From assembly GCA_015654675.1 (NCBI GenBank), contig JAATGM010000006.1:1-64000 (forward strand): DNA of 64,000 nucleotides, in the 5' to 3' direction. Numbering within the stretch: position 1 is the stretch's first letter; the number at the start of each line of letters is the position of its first letter. Shown here one piece after another: positions 1 to 12,332 of the stretch. Under the pieces are notes generated by a model. That model was given only the letters and a program-made list of their open reading frames with translations. It did not search any database and was not told the DNA's origin. Source of the DNA: Planctomycetota bacterium. GTDB taxonomy: Bacteria > Planctomycetota > Phycisphaerae > UBA1845 > UTPLA1. The position numbers were made by a program, and so were the translations under genes.

Positions 1-174
1 CAGACGGCGGCGCTGCTGGCTGACGCGGCGGCGCGCGAGGAACTGGGGCGTGCGGCGCGCGAGGTGGTGAAGCAGAACATCGGGGCGACGAAGAAGACGG
101 TGGACCTGGTGTGCGAGCAACTGGGGCTGCGGGCGGATCATCCGCCGGCGAGCATCGCGACGGCGCGTGTGTAG
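1..174 (+). CDS. C-terminal end of a glycosyltransferase, possibly Kdo transferase (WaaA-like), partial
   Basis: Only the last 57 residues are in the window and the gene runs off its left edge. The tail is an alanine-, arginine- and glutamate-rich helical stretch (LLADAAAREELGRAAREVV) followed by a short Asn-x-Gly-Ala-Thr segment and a final helix. This looks like the closing helices of GT-B glycosyltransferases, especially 3-deoxy-D-manno-octulosonic acid transferase, where such a stretch follows the sugar-nucleotide binding domain. The match rests on a short, compositionally biased tail, so the family call is tentative; that it is coding is well supported by its open frame and codon use. 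The stop is TAG at 172-174. Confidence 0.45.
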   Translation, partial: QTAALLADAAAREELGRAAREVVKQNIGATKKTVDLVCEQLGLRADHPPASIATARV

Positions 175-219: not shown

Positions 220-1701
220 TCAAGGGCAACTCGACGAGCATGTTGGGGTCGTCGGCACCTGCACGGAGCAGCCGGATTGCGAGATTCGCAGTGATCCGCT
301 GTTGGTGCCGCAGATGCAGATATCGAGGGCGGCATTCGTTGCGTGACAACCGTTGACGGAGGTGGTCCCGCTCCAGGTTGCTCCGCCGCTGAAGTGATTG
401 ACGCGCACCTGCCCGTCGAAAGTGACGGCGCCAGGGAGCGGCGTCGAAAGAGGACTGGCTGACCCGAAGTACAGGGTGCCCGAGGCCGTGTCGGTCGATA
501 CCCCGTTGGGGTTGATGTCGATAAGGCCGCCGGAAGCCAGTCCGGCCGTCATGCGAATGAGCGAGAGGGCCTGCGTGATATGCTTGACGCGAACGATGGA
601 TGAGCAGAGCCCGTCGATGAGAATTCGGCCGGTGCTCATCAGTCGTCCGTCGATGATGATACTGCCGGTCACATCCTCGAAGCATTTCACGTCTCCTGAA
701 ACGTCACCTTGCACTTCAATGGTGCCGCTGAGGGTCCCTTCGATGGTCAAGCTTCCGGTTAAGGCGCCCCCGACGGTCACGGACCCGGCAAGATCGCCCC
801 GATCGCCGCCCACCGCTGAGTTCACGACATGTCCGGCAAGGTTGCCTCCTATCGAGATGGCCGCGGTTGAACCCAGCGTGCAGTATCGGAGGTATATTTG
901 TCCGGCCGAAGCGATATCTCCAGCAATGAGAATCTGGCCGTCCACATTTCCAAATTCGGATTCCAGGGTTCCCGAGTCAATGGACGCGAGTTCGAGTACG
1001 CCTGAGAAGGGCACTTCGCCCGTCTTGACAACGTTGAGATGGGCCGCACCTGTCATTGCTCCGCCATTGATCACATGTCCGGCACCACCCGCGAACTGGA
1101 AAAGTCCGGCGATGCTGTGATTGTTCAAGTCAATGACAGAGCCGGATGAAAGGTGCCCGCAGGAGACGGTGGTACCGGCCGGGACTCCGGTTCGAAGGAT
1201 GAGCTGGCCATCGAATGTTCCGGTGAGGTCTTCATCGATAGCAATGATGGAGGATGTAACATCGGCGATATCGACAACGGAGGTGCTGCCGAGTGTTGCA
1301 AGAGTCATGCCGCCATCGAGGCGGGTGGTGACGGTTACGTCGCCGGCAAGCGTCCCGCTGACGATCAATTGCTTGAGCACAGGCACGGTGATCGTGCTTG
1401 AGGAAGAAACGTCGCCGCCGATGACGATCGATGCTTCGCCGCCCGTGCCGGCGTTGCGCAGCACCGTGATGTTTCCGGTCAGGTTGCCGGAGATGGCCGA
1501 GTCGGCGGCGATTGATGAGTAATGGCTGCCGGTTGGCTGGAGCGTAATCGCGCCGACGTTGGCGGCGCCGGGTCCGCTGCCTTTGGCGATTTTGACGGCA
1601 AAGTTGTCTGACACCGGCGTGGTGATCGAGGCCATGTTGGCTGGATTGCCGTTACTAACCAATTCCGCCGAGACAATCCAAGCGAGGTCGCCAGTGCGCA
1701 A
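220..1701 (-). CDS. Body of a secreted beta-solenoid-like repeat protein, cut from its signal peptide by an in-frame TGA
   Basis: Function is not recognised. The 493 residues are full of short repeats of the form Gly-x-Leu/Val-x-Gly-x-Val/Ile (GGNLAGHVV, GGALTGSLTIEGTLSG), a pattern expected of a right-handed beta-solenoid and similar in look to bactofilins. A Cys-rich tail (CICGTNSG, then CSSSCP) closes it. The only start in this piece is a TTG at 1701 with no Shine-Dalgarno and no export signal. Reading upstream in the same frame meets TGA at 1732-1734, then 57 more codons that begin with a normal ATG, ribosome site and signal peptide. I therefore read 220-1905 as one exported protein gene with a nonsense codon (or a sequencing error, often TGG read as TGA). 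It is transcribed divergently from the dockerin gene at 1931. Confidence 0.65.
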   Translation of the reverse strand: MRTGDLAWIVSAELVSNGNPANMASITTPVSDNFAVKIAKGSGPGAANVGAITLQPTGSHYSSIAADSAISGNLTGNITVLRNAGTGGEASIVIGGDVSSSSTITVPVLKQLIVSGTLAGDVTVTTRLDGGMTLATLGSTSVVDIADVTSSIIAIDEDLTGTFDGQLILRTGVPAGTTVSCGHLSSGSVIDLNNHSIAGLFQFAGGAGHVINGGAMTGAAHLNVVKTGEVPFSGVLELASIDSGTLESEFGNVDGQILIAGDIASAGQIYLRYCTLGSTAAISIGGNLAGHVVNSAVGGDRGDLAGSVTVGGALTGSLTIEGTLSGTIEVQGDVSGDVKCFEDVTGSIIIDGRLMSTGRILIDGLCSSIVRVKHITQALSLIRMTAGLASGGLIDINPNGVSTDTASGTLYFGSASPLSTPLPGAVTFDGQVRVNHFSGGATWSGTTSVNGCHATNAALDICICGTNSGSLRISQSGCSVQVPTTPTCSSSCP

Positions 1702-1731
1702 CTCGATCGAAGGACTCGATGGATTGCTGAA

Positions 1732-1905
1732 TCACGTAACAAAATCAACGCCATCAACGGGATTGGGTGACCGGCTCCATTCGACGCAGATCTTTACTTG
1801 AGAGCCAGTCGTGCATGCTGACCCTCCCGCAAGAGCCTGGAGCGCAGCGATATGCATCGCAAGCAGTGTCGCGGAAAGGTTGATCAAAATGATTCGCTTT
1901 TTCAT
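1732..1905 (-). pseudogene. Signal-peptide N-terminus of the interrupted solenoid gene
   Basis: This 57-codon piece starts at ATG 1905-1903, preceded by a good AGGAG ribosome site 5-9 bases upstream. It encodes a classical signal peptide: Lys-Lys-Arg, a hydrophobic core (IILINLSATLLAMHIAAL) and an Ala-x-Ala-like end near residue 25. About 30 mature residues follow, ending Asp-Phe-Val-Thr before TGA. The next codons in the same frame continue without another stop into the 493-residue body, so this is the missing start of that protein. On its own it would make only a short secreted peptide. Whether the TGA is real, recent or a base-call error cannot be decided here. Confidence 0.6.
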
Positions 1906-1930
1906 TGTCTTCTCCTGATAGAATAGTTAC

Positions 1931-2788
1931 ATGATCTCTCACGGCCCGAATAGCTCCGTCCGTCTCAGACGAGGCTTCTTGCGGTTGATGCTGGTGGTGG
2001 TTTTTTCCGTGTCCGCTAGAAATGCGCTTGCCGCGATTTTCGTCTACGAAGCCCAGTCGATGCCTGATGTTTCCGGTTGGCAGACAGTTCAAAATTACTG
2101 CAACCCTTTGCTCAGCATACAGAATGGTTGGTTTTGCGAAATCATGGACGTCTGTCCTGGTGTGCCTCCGCCTGGCGGACAGCAGGCAACCTACCGACGG
2201 GACATCGCTGAAATGGCGGAGGCCGAAGCTTTTTTTGTTGAGTGGCGGGTGCAAACCACTGCTGATAAATCTGAATTGAATTGGGGTGGCGGTGCTGCGC
2301 TCTCGGCTGCCAGCCACGGCGATGTTAATTATGCGTTTAAGATCGCGGCTGATCGTGCGGAGCTTAACCGCGATAATCTGTTGCCGTTGGCAATAGCGGA
2401 TATCGATGCTGGTGTGCCGCATACTTACCGCCTTGAACTCGTCGGAGCGGTATCCTACGTGTGGTACATTGATGGTCAAGTAGTAGATTCTGGTAGTCCC
2501 GAGGGGAATTACCCGTCTGCCGAACCGTTCATAGTTTGGCGGGCAAACGTCGCCTTCTTGCCCAGCACTACGCAGTGGGATTACATCCGGTACGGCACGA
2601 TCCCGGCTGATGGCAGCGGCGATTTTGATTCCAGCGGCGCGGTCGACGCGAACGACGTCTACTTCTTCCTCGACTGCCTGCTCGGGCCGGACTCGACCGG
2701 GCCGGGCTGCCGCTGGGCTGACATGAACCACGACGGCGCAACGAACGCCGCCGACATCCAGCAGTTTGTCGCCGCACTCGCTCATTGA
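1931..2788 (+). CDS. Secreted protein with LamG-like domain and C-terminal dockerin-like repeats
   Basis: The 285-residue product begins with an arginine-rich n-region and a hydrophobic core ending around ARNALA, so it should be exported. The middle (about residues 40-225) resembles a concanavalin-like LamG fold, with alternating strands and a closing WDYIRYG segment typical of that family. From about residue 232 to the end there are two EF-hand-like calcium loops (DFDSSGAVDAND and DMNHDGATNAAD), the dockerin type I pattern that planctomycetes often use as a terminal module. No clear ribosome site precedes the ATG. It lies only 25 bases from the divergent solenoid gene, so the two share one promoter region. 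Substrate or partner is unknown. Confidence 0.75.
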   Translation: MISHGPNSSVRLRRGFLRLMLVVVFSVSARNALAAIFVYEAQSMPDVSGWQTVQNYCNPLLSIQNGWFCEIMDVCPGVPPPGGQQATYRRDIAEMAEAEAFFVEWRVQTTADKSELNWGGGAALSAASHGDVNYAFKIAADRAELNRDNLLPLAIADIDAGVPHTYRLELVGAVSYVWYIDGQVVDSGSPEGNYPSAEPFIVWRANVAFLPSTTQWDYIRYGTIPADGSGDFDSSGAVDANDVYFFLDCLLGPDSTGPGCRWADMNHDGATNAADIQQFVAALAH

Positions 2789-7036: not shown

Positions 7037-7319
7037 AGTCTGCTCGATGAACGGTACAGGGGGATCACCTAGCAACTGCTGTGGCGCCAATCCTAGAAAA
7101 TCGGGGCGGTCCTAACTCTGTGCGCGTTAATGCGCATTGACCGCGCCTGGTTTAGCCCAGTACGCTACATGAACTGTCGTGAGTCACATTCATGCAGCAG
7201 TCTTCGCACCATTTCGCGAATTGCAACCGTAAGATCAGATTGCCCAAGAAGCACTTACACAGATCCGAAGTTCGTTAATCAGATATCCGCGGCTCGACTG
7301 ATTGCGGAGGGAGCTCAGC

Positions 7320-10300
7320 ATGTGCACTTCGATTCGAAGCCCGAATCGGCTGATCGGCGGGATTGCGCTCGGCCTAATCTGCCTTGGCGGGCCGCAAGCT
7401 TCGTTTGGGCAGGCGATTCGGTATGTAAATACCGCGGCGCCGGCCGGGGGAAATGGGCTGACTTGGGCGACGGCGTTCCAGTATCTGCAGGATGGCCTCG
7501 CGGCCGCGGCGAGTTCGGGCGGAGCGGTCACGCAGGTTTGGGTGGCGGCGGGGACTTACCGGCCGGATCAGGGCGCGGGGCAAACGCCGGGGGATCGTGC
7601 AGCAGCGTTCGGGCTATTGAATAGCGTGAGCGTATATGGCGGATTCGCGGGGAACGAAACTCTGCTCACTCAGCGGAACTTCACGCTTCATCCAACCATT
7701 CTTTCCGGCGATCTGGCCGGCAATGACGGCACGTTTTTCGAGAACTCGGAAGAGAATAGCTATCACGTCGTGCGGGCGGCGAGTGTCAATGCGGCTGTAC
7801 TGGATGGCTTTCAGATCCGGGGCGGGCGAGCGTCTGCGTCGCCGGCAGCCGGTGGGATCGACCGGGGCGGCGGGTTTTATCTGGTTTCATCGAGCGTCAC
7901 GATCGCGAACTGCAACATCTATCTGAACAAGACGTCTGATGGTGAGGCGCCGCCCTCGAATCTCCGGGACGGAGGCCCGGGCGGCGCGATCTTCGCGCAG
8001 AATTGCACGCTGGTCATGTCGAATTGCAGTCTGAGCAATAATTTCAGCGGGTCTGGGCGGAATTCAAACCAGATTCCGTCCATTGCGGGAAACGCGGGCA
8101 AAGGGGGTTGTGTTTACCTGCAGGCCTGCACCAGCACGTTTACTGCGTGCCAGTTCCTCGGAAATGGAACCGGATCCGGCGGAAGAGGATCCACCGGCAA
8201 CGTACCGGGAATCGGAGGAGATGGCGGAGCGATCTATTTCTCCAACGGCAGCGTTGTGTTCACGCGATGCGATTTCGCCAACAATTTCGCCGGCTTCGGT
8301 ACTCACGCTGATCCCGGGATTGGTTCAGCCGCGGGTAACGGTGGAGCGATTTACAATTCCGGTGCGCCGATCACGATCAGTCAATGCCGCTTCGTCAACA
8401 ACCAGGTTCAGCAGAGTGGAGGTGGTGACTCCAACGGACCCGGCGCCAATGGGAGCGCTGGGGGCGCGCTGGTAATTGTCAGCGGCAGCGCTTCGACGCT
8501 CGTCAATTCCACGTTCGTTGGAAATGTCGCCGGCGCAGGCGGTAACGGCTTCCGTGGCAGTATGGGCGGGTCCGGCGGAGCAGTGTATTTCTCGGTGAAC
8601 GTAGCACCGACGATTGCTAATTGCACGTTCGAGAGCAACCGGGCCGGACCGGGCGGAGGAGGACTGGGTGGTTCGCGCGGCGGTAATGGCGGCGATGGCG
8701 GCGCGGTTTACTACAGCGGCGCGACTCCCACGATTTCGAACTGCATCTTTTATCGAAATCATGCCGGACTGGCCGGGGCTGGATTTCCAGCGGGATTGGC
8801 CGGGCGGGGCGACGCGGTTTATGGAGCCTCCGGCGCGGCCGTGACGGTCTCGCACAGTGATATCGAGGGTGGTCAGTCGAGCGTGGTTGCCGCGGGCGGG
8901 CTTAACTGGCTGCCGGGGAATATCAACGCAGACCCGCAGTATCGGGACATTGACGGGGCGGACAACGTCACCGGCACCCTTGACGACGACCTGCGGCTGA
9001 CAGTGCATTCACCTTGCGTGGATGCCGGAGACAACGCACGCGTTCCGGTGGGTGTGACGGTTGATCTCGCTGGAAATCCGCGATTCACAGATTCGCTTCC
9101 TGTAACGGACTGCCAGTATGCACCGGGGACTTGCGGGACGGCGCCAATCGTGGACATGGGGGCGTATGAGCTCACGTGTCTTGAGGACAGCGACGGGGAC
9201 GGGGTGTGTGACGCGAATGACAACTGCCCGGCGTTGGCTTCGGCGAATCAGCAGGACTCTGACGGCGATGGATTTGGCGACGTTTGCGACAACTGCCCGT
9301 CGGTTCAGAACCCGAGCCAGGCGAATCTGGACGGCGACGTTTTCGGCGACGCATGTGACAACTGCCCATCGTTTCCATCGTCGAACGGGGCGGACGGCGA
9401 CGGCGATGGCGTGGGCGACGCGTGCGACAATTGCCCGTTCGTTCAGAATGCCGATCAGGCCAACAGTGATGGGGACGCGTTCGGGAACGCGTGCGATAAT
9501 TGTCCGAATCTAGCGTCGCCAAATCTGAAAGACAGCGACGGCGACGGCGTGGGGGATGCGTGCGACAACTGCATCTCGATTCCCAATCCGGATCAGGCGA
9601 ACAGTGACGGGGATGCATACGGCGATGCGTGCGACAACTGCCCGCACTTCGCGTCTTCCAATTTGCAGGATAGCGACGGGGACGGTGTGGGAGACGTTTG
9701 CGACAATTGCCCAATTCCGAATCCGGACCAGGCCAACGCCGACGGCGATCCATTCGGCGACGCCTGCGATAACTGTCCATTGGCGTACTATCCGACGCAG
9801 GTGGACTCCGATGGCGACGGTGTCGGCGACGCCTGTGACAACTGCATCAGCGTCGCCAATCCGAGTCAGGCCGATTGCGATCACAATGGAATAGGGGACG
9901 CCTGCGAGCCGCAAACGGCGGACACCGATGGAGATGGGATCAACGATTCGTGCGACAACTGTCCAATGACGCCGAATCCGACGCAGACGGATAGCGACGG
10001 CGACTCGATTGGCGATGCATGTGACAATTGTCCGCAAATCTTCAATCTGAATCAGGCGGACTGCGATGGGAATGGCGTCGGGGACGTCTGCGACGTTAAC
10101 GGGGCCGACTGTAATGGCAACGGTGTCGTGGATATGTGTGAGCTGGCGACGGTCAGCTTTGCACCGCCACAGACGTACGCGGTCGGCGACCATCCGACGG
10201 CTGCGACGGCTTTTGATATCGAGCAAGACGGCGATGTTGATGTGCTGGTGGCGAATTACGCCGGCAATAGTGTTTCGGTATTGCTCAATGACGTTGACGG

Positions 10301-12332
10301 GAGCGTGTTTTACGACGGGACTGGGCTGACATCCGCGGCCGGGCCATTCTCGATCGCATCGGCTGATTTCAATTCGGACGGGCTGGGTGACGCGATTGTC
10401 GCGTGCACCGATGCCAATTCGATCAATTTGTTTCTCAATAACGGCATGGGCGGACTGAATCCGGGTGGAAACTATTCTGTGGCCGGTGGGCCTATTTCGG
10501 TCATTGCAGCCGATCTGGATGGTGACGGCCGGGCTGACATTGCCACAGCGGACTTTTCGCTCGATCGCGTGAGCGTCTTGTGGAACAAAGGCGGGAGTGG
10601 CGCCGGCTGGCTTGGATTGATGCCGGCGGTGAGCTTTACGGCAGGCGATAGTCCGCAATCGGTGGTGGCGGCTGACCTGGATGGTGACGGCCGACTCGAC
10701 CTTGTGACCGCGAATGCAAACTCCAACTCAGTGACGGTGATGCGCAATTTGGGCGGCCGGTTGTTCGGCGCGCCGCAGTCATTCGCAGTGGGCTCAGTGC
10801 CGGTGTCGGTGGTCGCGGCGGATTTGAATGGGGACGGCCGCGTGGATCTTGCGGCGGCGAATCTTGGGTCTGCAAATGTATCGGTGCTGATCAATCTGGG
10901 CGGCGGATCGTTTGCGGCGGCGGTGAATTATTCGGCGGGATTGCAACCGTCGGCGGTGGTCGCGGCTGATCTGTCGGGCGACGGTCGACCGGAGCTGGTG
11001 GTGTGCAACAGCGGGTCGGCGAGTTTGTCGGTGTTTGTGAATCGAGCGTCGGCGGGATTCGGGGCAGCCCAGACGGTCGCGGTGCCGGCCGGGGCGTTGA
11101 CGCCGGTGGTCGCGGACTTCAATTTCGATGGCGCGCTCGACCTCGCGGTTCCCAATCGGAATGCGGATACGGCGACGGTGCTCATCAATACCAGTCCCGC
11201 GCCCATGGCCGCGGACTGCAACGGCGACGGAGTTCCGGACGCGTGCAATCTGGCGAGCGGTACGAGCGCGGACGGTGACTCGAACGGACAGCCGGACGAG
11301 TGCCAGCTGGTCGCGAATCTTTCGATGACGACCCTGTGTGGTTCAAGCTCTTTGACGGGCGTCGGATTGCTGTCGTTTTCGAATGAGGGGCCGGCGGGCG
11401 ATGCGGGCTGCACCGGCGAGATTGAGTCGCGAATGTTCGCGGGACGGACCGGCGTGGGCGACGCTCCGCTCTGGCAGGTGGGATCTGATTGCGGGCAATC
11501 ACTCTTCGGCGGCGTGCTCGGCAGTCCGGAATCGGTGCTGGTTGATGTTGGCAATGCGTGGGGGCCGCCCTACGGCACGCCGAATGTGCTGCTGATCGGC
11601 GGGCGGATTGGATCGCAGGATCAGTTGTATGTCACCGACGGGTTGGATAGTTCGGTCTGCGAGCAGTTAACCGGCTCGGTAGGCCGGATCGGTCAAATGG
11701 CGCTTGCGCCAGACGGCCGACTGTTCCTCGGAAGCGTTGAGGGGGCTTGCGTTCAGGTTGCGCAAGGTGGCGTGATCTCGCCCTTGTATTGTGCGGTCGG
11801 CGCTTCGCTGCGCGCGGTGGCGCTCGATTCGGCCGGGAATATTTTCGTGACTGGCGCAGCGGACGGCATGCTTCGCAAATTGTCTCCCGCCGGCGCACTT
11901 ATGAATGGAAGCGTCGCGACGGGGTTGCATGGCGCGATCAGTCAGGCGTTTGCGCCGGCGGGGCCTTATCGGGGGCATCTGTACGTCGCGTGCGGTGCGC
12001 CGGGGAACCGCGTGGTTGAAGTGGACGTCGCGACCGGCGTCTGTCATGACGTGCTTCATAACGTGCCTGTATACGGCATCGCGTTCGATCCAAATGGGGT
12101 GATGTACGTGTCGGTGCCGTCGGCGAACCGCGTATTGCGAATCCTGCCTACCGTTCGCGGGGACGTCAGCGGCGACGGGATTGTAAGCCCGGCGGATGTG
12201 GCGGGGTTCGCGGCCGCGATTGTTTCAAGTTCGAACGCGCCGAAGCCGCTAATCGTCGCGGATATGAATGGCGATGGATGCGTTAATGGATTGGATGTGT
12301 CGGCATTTGCGGCGGCGGTGGTGGGGCCGTAA
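7320..12332 (+). CDS. Giant multi-domain surface protein: beta-helix, thrombospondin type 3 repeats, FG-GAP repeats, propeller, dockerin
   Basis: A 1670-residue exported protein. The ATG at 7320 follows a GGAGGGAG site; six upstream in-frame codons are less likely. Domains in order: signal peptide ending near ASFGQA; a right-handed parallel beta-helix of the planctomycete type ([19 protein letters not shown] start, repeated GGAIY/SNCTF coils, to about residue 620); 12 calcium-binding thrombospondin type 3 repeats with 12 DNC motifs (623-940); FG-GAP/VCBS repeats (AADLDGDGR-type, about 945-1300); a region like a six-bladed propeller (1330-1610); and a dockerin-like pair of EF-hand loops ([13 protein letters not shown] and [12 protein letters not shown]). 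Calcium-stabilised, probably surface or matrix located, adhesive or structural. Its flanks carry direct repeats (6941-7036 and 12358-12455). Confidence 0.85.
9186..10142 (+). repeat. Tandem thrombospondin type 3 repeats with a two-unit super-repeat
   Basis: Inside the giant protein gene. Two 23-residue unit types alternate: an A unit of the form [20 protein letters not shown] and a B unit of the form [22 protein letters not shown]. About four AB pairs follow each other with a period of 46 residues (138 bases) before the last, more divergent units. The nucleotide sequence follows the same period, suggesting growth by duplication of pairs. Confidence 0.75.

What the first reader, a model, noticed from the sequence alone, without database searches (positions are those of the whole stretch)
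220..1905. Exported solenoid gene split by a single in-frame TGA
ATG 1905 with AGGAG opens a signal peptide frame that meets TGA at 1732-1734 and then continues in the same frame for 504 codons without another stop. Everything else about the gene is intact, so this is a single-codon lesion, a sequencing error, or a programmed stop.
Basis: seen in the sequence. Interest (0 to 1): 0.55.

Follow-up and report, generated by a model that had tools for sequence, protein, structure and literature searches.

The report
Solenoid gene with premature stop
A gene for an exported, spring-shaped protein in an uncultured planctomycete is interrupted by one stop codon not seen at that place in the relatives examined, so it is most likely a freshly broken copy in a gene family that breaks often, rather than a specially decoded gene.

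Summary
In detail: ATG 1905(-) behind AGGAG, 57 codons with a signal peptide, TGA at 1734-1732, then 503 open codons to a TGA at 222-220. It is one gene: relatives read through the site, with a signal peptide. Recoding is unlikely. In 48 aligned homologous stretches the residue at that column is D28 T5 N4 S4 G2 E2 I2 M1, never Cys or Trp. This needed testing, because the genome does decode UGA as selenocysteine: tRNA-Sec, SelA, SelB and a TGA-bearing SelD are present. The hairpin after the TGA is of a kind found after 374 of 1706 TGA triplets in the window. Other copies are broken too, at other places, by TGA, TAG, TAA or frame changes: 15 of 57 copies. Best reading: a recent nonsense lesion in the only copy found in this genome, or else a consensus error of a draft genome; only reads can separate the two. 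Unexpected context: the gene belongs to a multi-copy family with no Pfam or NCBIfam match, usually head to head with a lectin-fold/dockerin protein gene (39 of 45 N-terminal matches).

The parts
1912..1916 (-). ribosome-binding site AGGAG, 6 nt before the ATG
   Evidence: read directly
1735..1905 (-). first 57 codons: signal peptide and start of the N-terminal domain
   Evidence: profile match to homologues E 3.9e-10; signal peptide judged by eye, helix 2-25 in the model
1732..1734 (-). in-frame TGA
   Evidence: aligned residues in 48 homologous stretches D28 T5 N4 S4 G2 E2 I2 M1
223..1731 (-). 503 codons in the same frame after the TGA: rest of the N-terminal beta domain and the beta-solenoid; natural stop TGA at 222-220
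   Evidence: read-through AlphaFold2 model, mean pLDDT 88.6, pTM 0.85
1492..1824 (-). N-terminal beta-rich domain (read-through residues 28-138, border judged by eye); the TGA falls at the end of the strand at residues 55-58
   Evidence: secondary structure of the model
223..1470 (-). beta-solenoid (read-through residues about 146-561, border judged by eye)
   Evidence: best chain 3p4g_A, Z 23.5, rmsd 2.6 over 271 residues
1931..2788 (+). uninterrupted partner gene P, head to head with 25 bases between the two start codons: exported protein with a concanavalin/glucanase-like beta-sandwich and a type I dockerin
   Evidence: PF00404 24.8 bits, cut-off 22.9; model pLDDT 84.6 and matches at Z up to 16.9; head to head with the solenoid gene in 39 of 45 N-terminal matches

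Best explanation
The gene encodes an exported protein with an N-terminal beta domain and a long beta-solenoid. A nonsense change put a TGA at codon 58. Translation then yields only a signal peptide and about 30 further residues, and the solenoid is not made or exported. The gene is therefore a recently broken copy (pseudogene). Shown: the stop, uninterrupted relatives, the variable aligned position, broken sister copies elsewhere, and no second match in this genome. Inferred: that the stop exists in the organism, that it is recent, and that the product is lost.
For: Relatives are full length and read through the site. None of 48 aligned homologous stretches has Cys or Trp there, and none of the other six in-frame stops counted in the family falls there. 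This stop is the only lesion seen, and the downstream frame keeps 30-39% identity to nine homologues, which fits a young lesion. Interruptions are common in the family: 17 in 15 of 57 copies over 23,942 aligned residues, with all three stop codons (3 TGA, 2 TAG, 2 TAA) and 10 frame changes. ArgS searched in the same 114 genomes shows no stop in any listed row (the tool cut its list).
Against: No reads and no second genome of the species were available: one search found no relative in genome contigs, and that tool may leave out the window's own genome. Uninterrupted copies are under selection (dN/dS 0.24, 0.51 and 0.34 in three same-genome pairs), so loss is not free; pairs that involve broken copies give similar values (0.25 to 0.57), so relaxed selection is not shown. 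That this gene breaks more than its partner P is not established: 15 of 57 against 3 of 46 copies (P 0.009), but P = 0.077 when length is allowed for, and order-wide 11 of 98 solenoid rows and 9 of 88 partner rows contain a stop.
Confidence: 0.72

Rival explanations
1. Consensus or assembly error: the organism has a sense codon there and the gene is intact.
For: Draft genome in 62 contigs, gene 219 bases from a contig end, where assemblies are weaker; the rest of the frame is clean. On contigs of 10 kb or more, family members lie within 1.5 kb of a contig end in 17 of 34 cases against 4.1 expected, so these loci assemble badly.
Against: Family lesions are many and at different places, also in a genome of only 7 contigs (G019), while ArgS shows none in listed rows.
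Confidence: 0.2
2. Selenocysteine: UGA is decoded by the genome's own Sec machinery.
For: Complete machinery: tRNA-Sec 67.4 bits over cut-off and named by ARAGORN, SelA, SelB, and a SelD with an in-frame TGA in the motif CAG*AGK. A 5-bp hairpin with loop GTCCT starts 11 nt after the TGA.
Against: No Cys in 48 homologous stretches, although almost all selenoproteins have Cys homologues (PMC12013277, passages seen). 374 of 1706 TGA triplets in the window are followed by such a hairpin of at least 5 bp, and folding energy is ordinary (43.7% of 1000 sampled sites as low or lower). The hairpin is much weaker than that of selD and is not kept in the 63-nt fold.
Confidence: 0.03
3. Programmed read-through, or restart of translation after the stop.
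For: The downstream frame is clean for 503 codons.
Against: The first ATG, GTG or TTG after the stop in this frame is TTG 1701, and the frame from there lacks a signal peptide. No other counted stop of the family lies at this place, and they include TAG and TAA.
Confidence: 0.04

Closest known systems
Ordinary bacterial pseudogenes by nonsense mutation, as counted in MAGs (PMC13288992, abstract start and passages seen: 125-527 pseudogenes per high-quality MAG, most in the largest such as Planctomycetes)
   Same: One inactivating change in an otherwise open accessory gene of a MAG.
   Different: That study concerns Ca. Brocadia and other lineages, not this order; reads are not available here.
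Selenocysteine-decoded genes such as selD of this same genome
   Same: In-frame TGA in a genome with tRNA-Sec, SelA, SelB and SelD.
   Different: No Cys homologue at the site and no distinctive hairpin.
Beta-solenoid surface proteins in the PDB, best match 3p4g (Ca2+-dependent beta-helical antifreeze protein)
   Same: Predicted beta-solenoid, Z 23.5 over 271 residues.
   Different: No sequence match in the PDB at E 0.01; Foldseek E only 0.018 for that chain; function cannot be carried over.
Cohesin/dockerin 'planctosome' hypothesised in freshwater Planctomycetes, Nemodlikiaceae (PMC6461901, passages seen)
   Same: Exported planctomycete proteins with a dockerin and no evidence for cellulose degradation.
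   Different: No cohesin was looked for here; partner P has a lectin/glucanase-like fold, not a peptidase.

Membership tests
Nonsense pseudogene | Premature stop that cuts a domain conserved in full-length relatives | tested here: met
Nonsense pseudogene | Stop not conserved among relatives | tested here: met
   48 homologous stretches have a residue at the column, none Cys or Trp (stretches are stop-free by construction); the six other in-frame stops counted lie elsewhere
Nonsense pseudogene | Stop present in the organism, not only in the assembly | not testable with these tools
   no reads; no second genome of the species found
Nonsense pseudogene | Relaxed selection or further decay | tested here: inconclusive
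   single lesion; dN/dS of pairs with broken copies 0.25-0.57, three uninterrupted pairs 0.24-0.51; no close relative of the window copy itself
Selenoprotein gene | Sec machinery in the genome | tested here: met
Selenoprotein gene | Cys or Sec at the aligned position in homologues | tested here: not met
   0 of 48 Cys; no other counted TGA at that place
Selenoprotein gene | SECIS hairpin after the UGA, beyond chance | tested here: inconclusive
   5-bp candidate present, but 374 of 1706 TGA triplets in the window have one; the hairpin rules in the script were recalled
UGA reassigned to Trp | Trp at the aligned position; UGA not a stop | tested here: not met
   0 of 48 Trp; this gene's own natural stop is TGA
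Beta-solenoid protein | Repeated beta-strand coils in a confident model | tested here: met
   prediction only
Type I dockerin protein (partner P) | PF00404 over its cut-off | tested here: met
   24.8 bits against 22.9

The most novel reading that the evidence does not exclude
The solenoid gene and its head-to-head lectin/dockerin partner form an undescribed surface module of one planctomycete order. Its copies are duplicated, shuffled, truncated and broken so often that they act as a fast-turnover surface repertoire, with broken and fragmentary copies as material for recombination. Seen: patchy presence and up to 16 profile matches in one genome, blocks of 80-94% identity inside copies that differ more elsewhere, C-terminal fragments, loci at contig ends. 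Not shown: recombination, expression, or any exchange in this genome, which has one match.
Probability: 0.12. Interest if true: 0.6.

Novelty: new member of a known kind. Interest (0 to 1): 0.27.

Why it matters
The stop itself is ordinary. It is useful as a worked negative: in a genome that truly carries the selenocysteine system, an in-frame TGA with a nearby hairpin looks like recoding until the aligned column is read across relatives. The context is more worthwhile: a two-gene exported module with no Pfam or NCBIfam match for its solenoid half, mostly head to head and often broken, which could be annotated and tested.

Tried and rejected
Selenocysteine: considered seriously once tRNA-Sec and SelA appeared; set aside on the aligned column and the hairpin control. 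Trp: rejected on the same column. Phase variation: a point stop gives no support, and no repeat tract is seen at the site. Frameshift rather than stop: rejected, the same frame continues and aligns on both sides, although the strand around the stop reads F-V-T-stop-F where relatives read F-x-V-x-F.

Family names: Pfam and NCBIfam gave nothing for the solenoid proteins given. No PDB sequence match for S or P at E 0.01. A phylum-wide draw found only the window's own copy in 392 genomes, but that look scored at most 3 candidates per genome in the rows shown, so it is weak evidence for restriction to the order. Other split genes in the window: three adjacent in-frame pairs checked with Pfam gave no case of two pieces matching one family; this was not a full survey. 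Paper searches (listings, plus passages) listed no paper on this family; that covers only those terms and that library. Promoter scan of 1700-2200: nothing found. Fold matches of the N-terminal beta domain alone were not tested.

Limits of the counts: the 57 S and 46 P copies come from 54 loci that I chose, nearly all from the match list; some short fragments in that list were not fetched. L028 and L029 may be pieces of one gene. Some frame changes fall in poorly aligned stretches. Loci that end early without a second matched piece (for example L030, L096, L025) are not counted as broken. In one search the stretches are stop-free by construction, so that call alone cannot show a stop. My first contig-end count (17 of 26) left out the two genomes of few contigs; one search puts back eight of their places (17 of 34) and the result stands, but places whose contig length I had not seen, and contigs under 10 kb, are still left out. 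The odds did not need changing.

Full report
WHAT IS THERE. On the - strand, AGGAG (1916-1912) precedes ATG 1905. The frame runs 57 codons with a signal peptide (judged by eye), meets TGA at 1734-1732, and continues 503 codons to a TGA at 222-220. The window is the first 64 kb of contig C18 of a 4.93 Mb draft genome in 62 contigs, 96% complete. A scan with the partner gene's alignment gave 46 loci from named MAGs, nearly all Phycisphaerae, Phycisphaerales or other Planctomycetota; one is labelled Proteobacteria.

IT IS ONE GENE. A pairwise search found matches in 11 of 61 genomes, counting its own. Several relatives are single full-length frames with a signal peptide that pass through the site without a stop. 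A profile built from the window's post-stop part and nine relatives recovers the window's pre-stop piece at E 3.9e-10, in register (model 6-57, then 60-556).

WHY RECODING IS UNLIKELY. The genome carries the selenocysteine system: tRNA-Sec (67.4 bits, over the cut-off; ARAGORN agrees), SelA, SelB and a SelD with an in-frame TGA in CAG*AGK. So the question was real. In 48 homologous stretches that cover the column the residue is D28 T5 N4 S4 G2 E2 I2 M1; no Cys, no Trp (two loci give two stretches each; stretches are stop-free by construction). None of the six other in-frame stops counted in the family falls at this place. The column lies in a strand of the type F-x-V-x-F. A 5-bp hairpin with loop GTCCT begins 11 nt after the TGA, but 374 of 1706 TGA triplets in the window are followed by a hairpin of that kind, and 43.7% of 1000 sampled sites fold as well or better. 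The selD hairpin of the same genome is far stronger. PMC12013277 states that almost all selenoproteins have Cys homologues (passages seen).

THE FAMILY BREAKS OFTEN. An order-wide search found the family in 24 of 114 genomes at E 1e-10, with up to 16 matches in one genome. In 54 loci that I held, a profile scan of stop-to-stop frames gave 57 copies with 17 interruptions in 15 copies over 23,942 aligned residues: 7 in-frame stops (3 TGA, 2 TAG, 2 TAA) and 10 frame changes. The partner gene P in the same loci had 3 interruptions in 46 copies over 11,261 residues. Copy by copy that differs (Fisher 0.009); per residue it does not reach significance (P = 0.077); and in the order-wide lists 11 of 98 solenoid rows and 9 of 88 partner rows contain a stop (Fisher 1.0). 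So both genes of the pair are often broken, and it is not shown that the solenoid gene is worse off. ArgS, searched in the same 114 genomes, had no stop in any listed row (list cut by the tool). Three pairs of uninterrupted copies within one genome give dN/dS 0.24, 0.51 and 0.34, so the intact gene is under selection; nine further pairs, most of them with a broken or truncated copy, give 0.25-0.57, which shows no relaxation.

THE CONTEXT. 25 bases separate the start codons of this gene and of the + strand gene 1931-2788. That gene, P, carries a type I dockerin (24.8 bits, cut-off 22.9). Its model (pLDDT 84.6) matches concanavalin/glucanase-like sandwiches, best by VIA-align 1mac_A, Z 16.9, rmsd 2.7 over 175 residues; Foldseek's first rows are carbohydrate-binding domains of clostridial neurotoxins at about 9% identity, the same common fold and no sign of kinship. 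P is head to head with the solenoid gene in 39 of 45 N-terminal solenoid matches; of the 6 others, two have under 200 bases of contig upstream. Presence of the two genes is linked: S in 24, P in 23, both in 17 of 114 genomes (Fisher 3e-10). The link is not strict: S was found without P in 7 genomes and P without S in 6, and of 25 further P loci only 5 showed an S match in the fetched flanks, many of which end at contig ends. This genome has one S and one P match.

STRUCTURE. The read-through model (TGA read as a residue) has mean pLDDT 88.6 and pTM 0.85: signal helix, beta domain to about residue 138, then a beta-solenoid. Best PDB match by VIA-align is 3p4g_A, Z 23.5, rmsd 2.6 over 271 residues; Foldseek gave nothing at E 0.001. 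The matches mostly cover the solenoid; the N-terminal domain was barely tested (note). This is a shared fold, not a function.

VERDICT. A nonsense-broken copy is the best reading (0.72), a consensus error next (0.20), recoding or programmed stop together about 0.07. What would settle it is reads over the site. Likely role of the intact protein: an exported surface or matrix solenoid working beside a lectin-like dockerin protein; this is inferred from fold, signal peptide and pairing only.

Noticed in passing
window 1931-2788 and loci listed: Head-to-head pair of an exported solenoid gene and an exported lectin-fold/dockerin gene, in 39 of 45 N-terminal solenoid matches, with no Pfam or NCBIfam match for the solenoid.
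   Followed up: partly
34 family places on contigs of 10 kb or more: 17 of 34 solenoid genes lie within 1.5 kb of a contig end; 4.1 expected, 0 of 20,000 random draws as high. These loci seem to break assemblies.
   Followed up: partly
G000:C1:189544-190467 (L111), G000:C11:90995-91088, G000:C48: The window's genome has tRNA-Sec, SelA, SelB and a Sec-type SelD carrying an in-frame TGA with a strong hairpin after it.
   Followed up: partly
L022, L017 C-terminal ends: Some family members end in a dockerin-like tail (repeats of the type GDMTNDGSVDILDINPF) in place of the usual Cys-Pro end; read by eye.
   Followed up: no
L026, L027, L077, L086, L095: More than one copy of partner P beside a solenoid gene.
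   Followed up: no
window 1-173, + strand: End of an open frame that runs in from the contig start and stops at TAG 171-173; read by eye, identity untested.
   Followed up: no
window 7302-12332, + strand: 1676-residue frame with thrombospondin-type-3-like repeats (NCBIfam matches below cut-off); FG-GAP-like repeats by eye.
   Followed up: no
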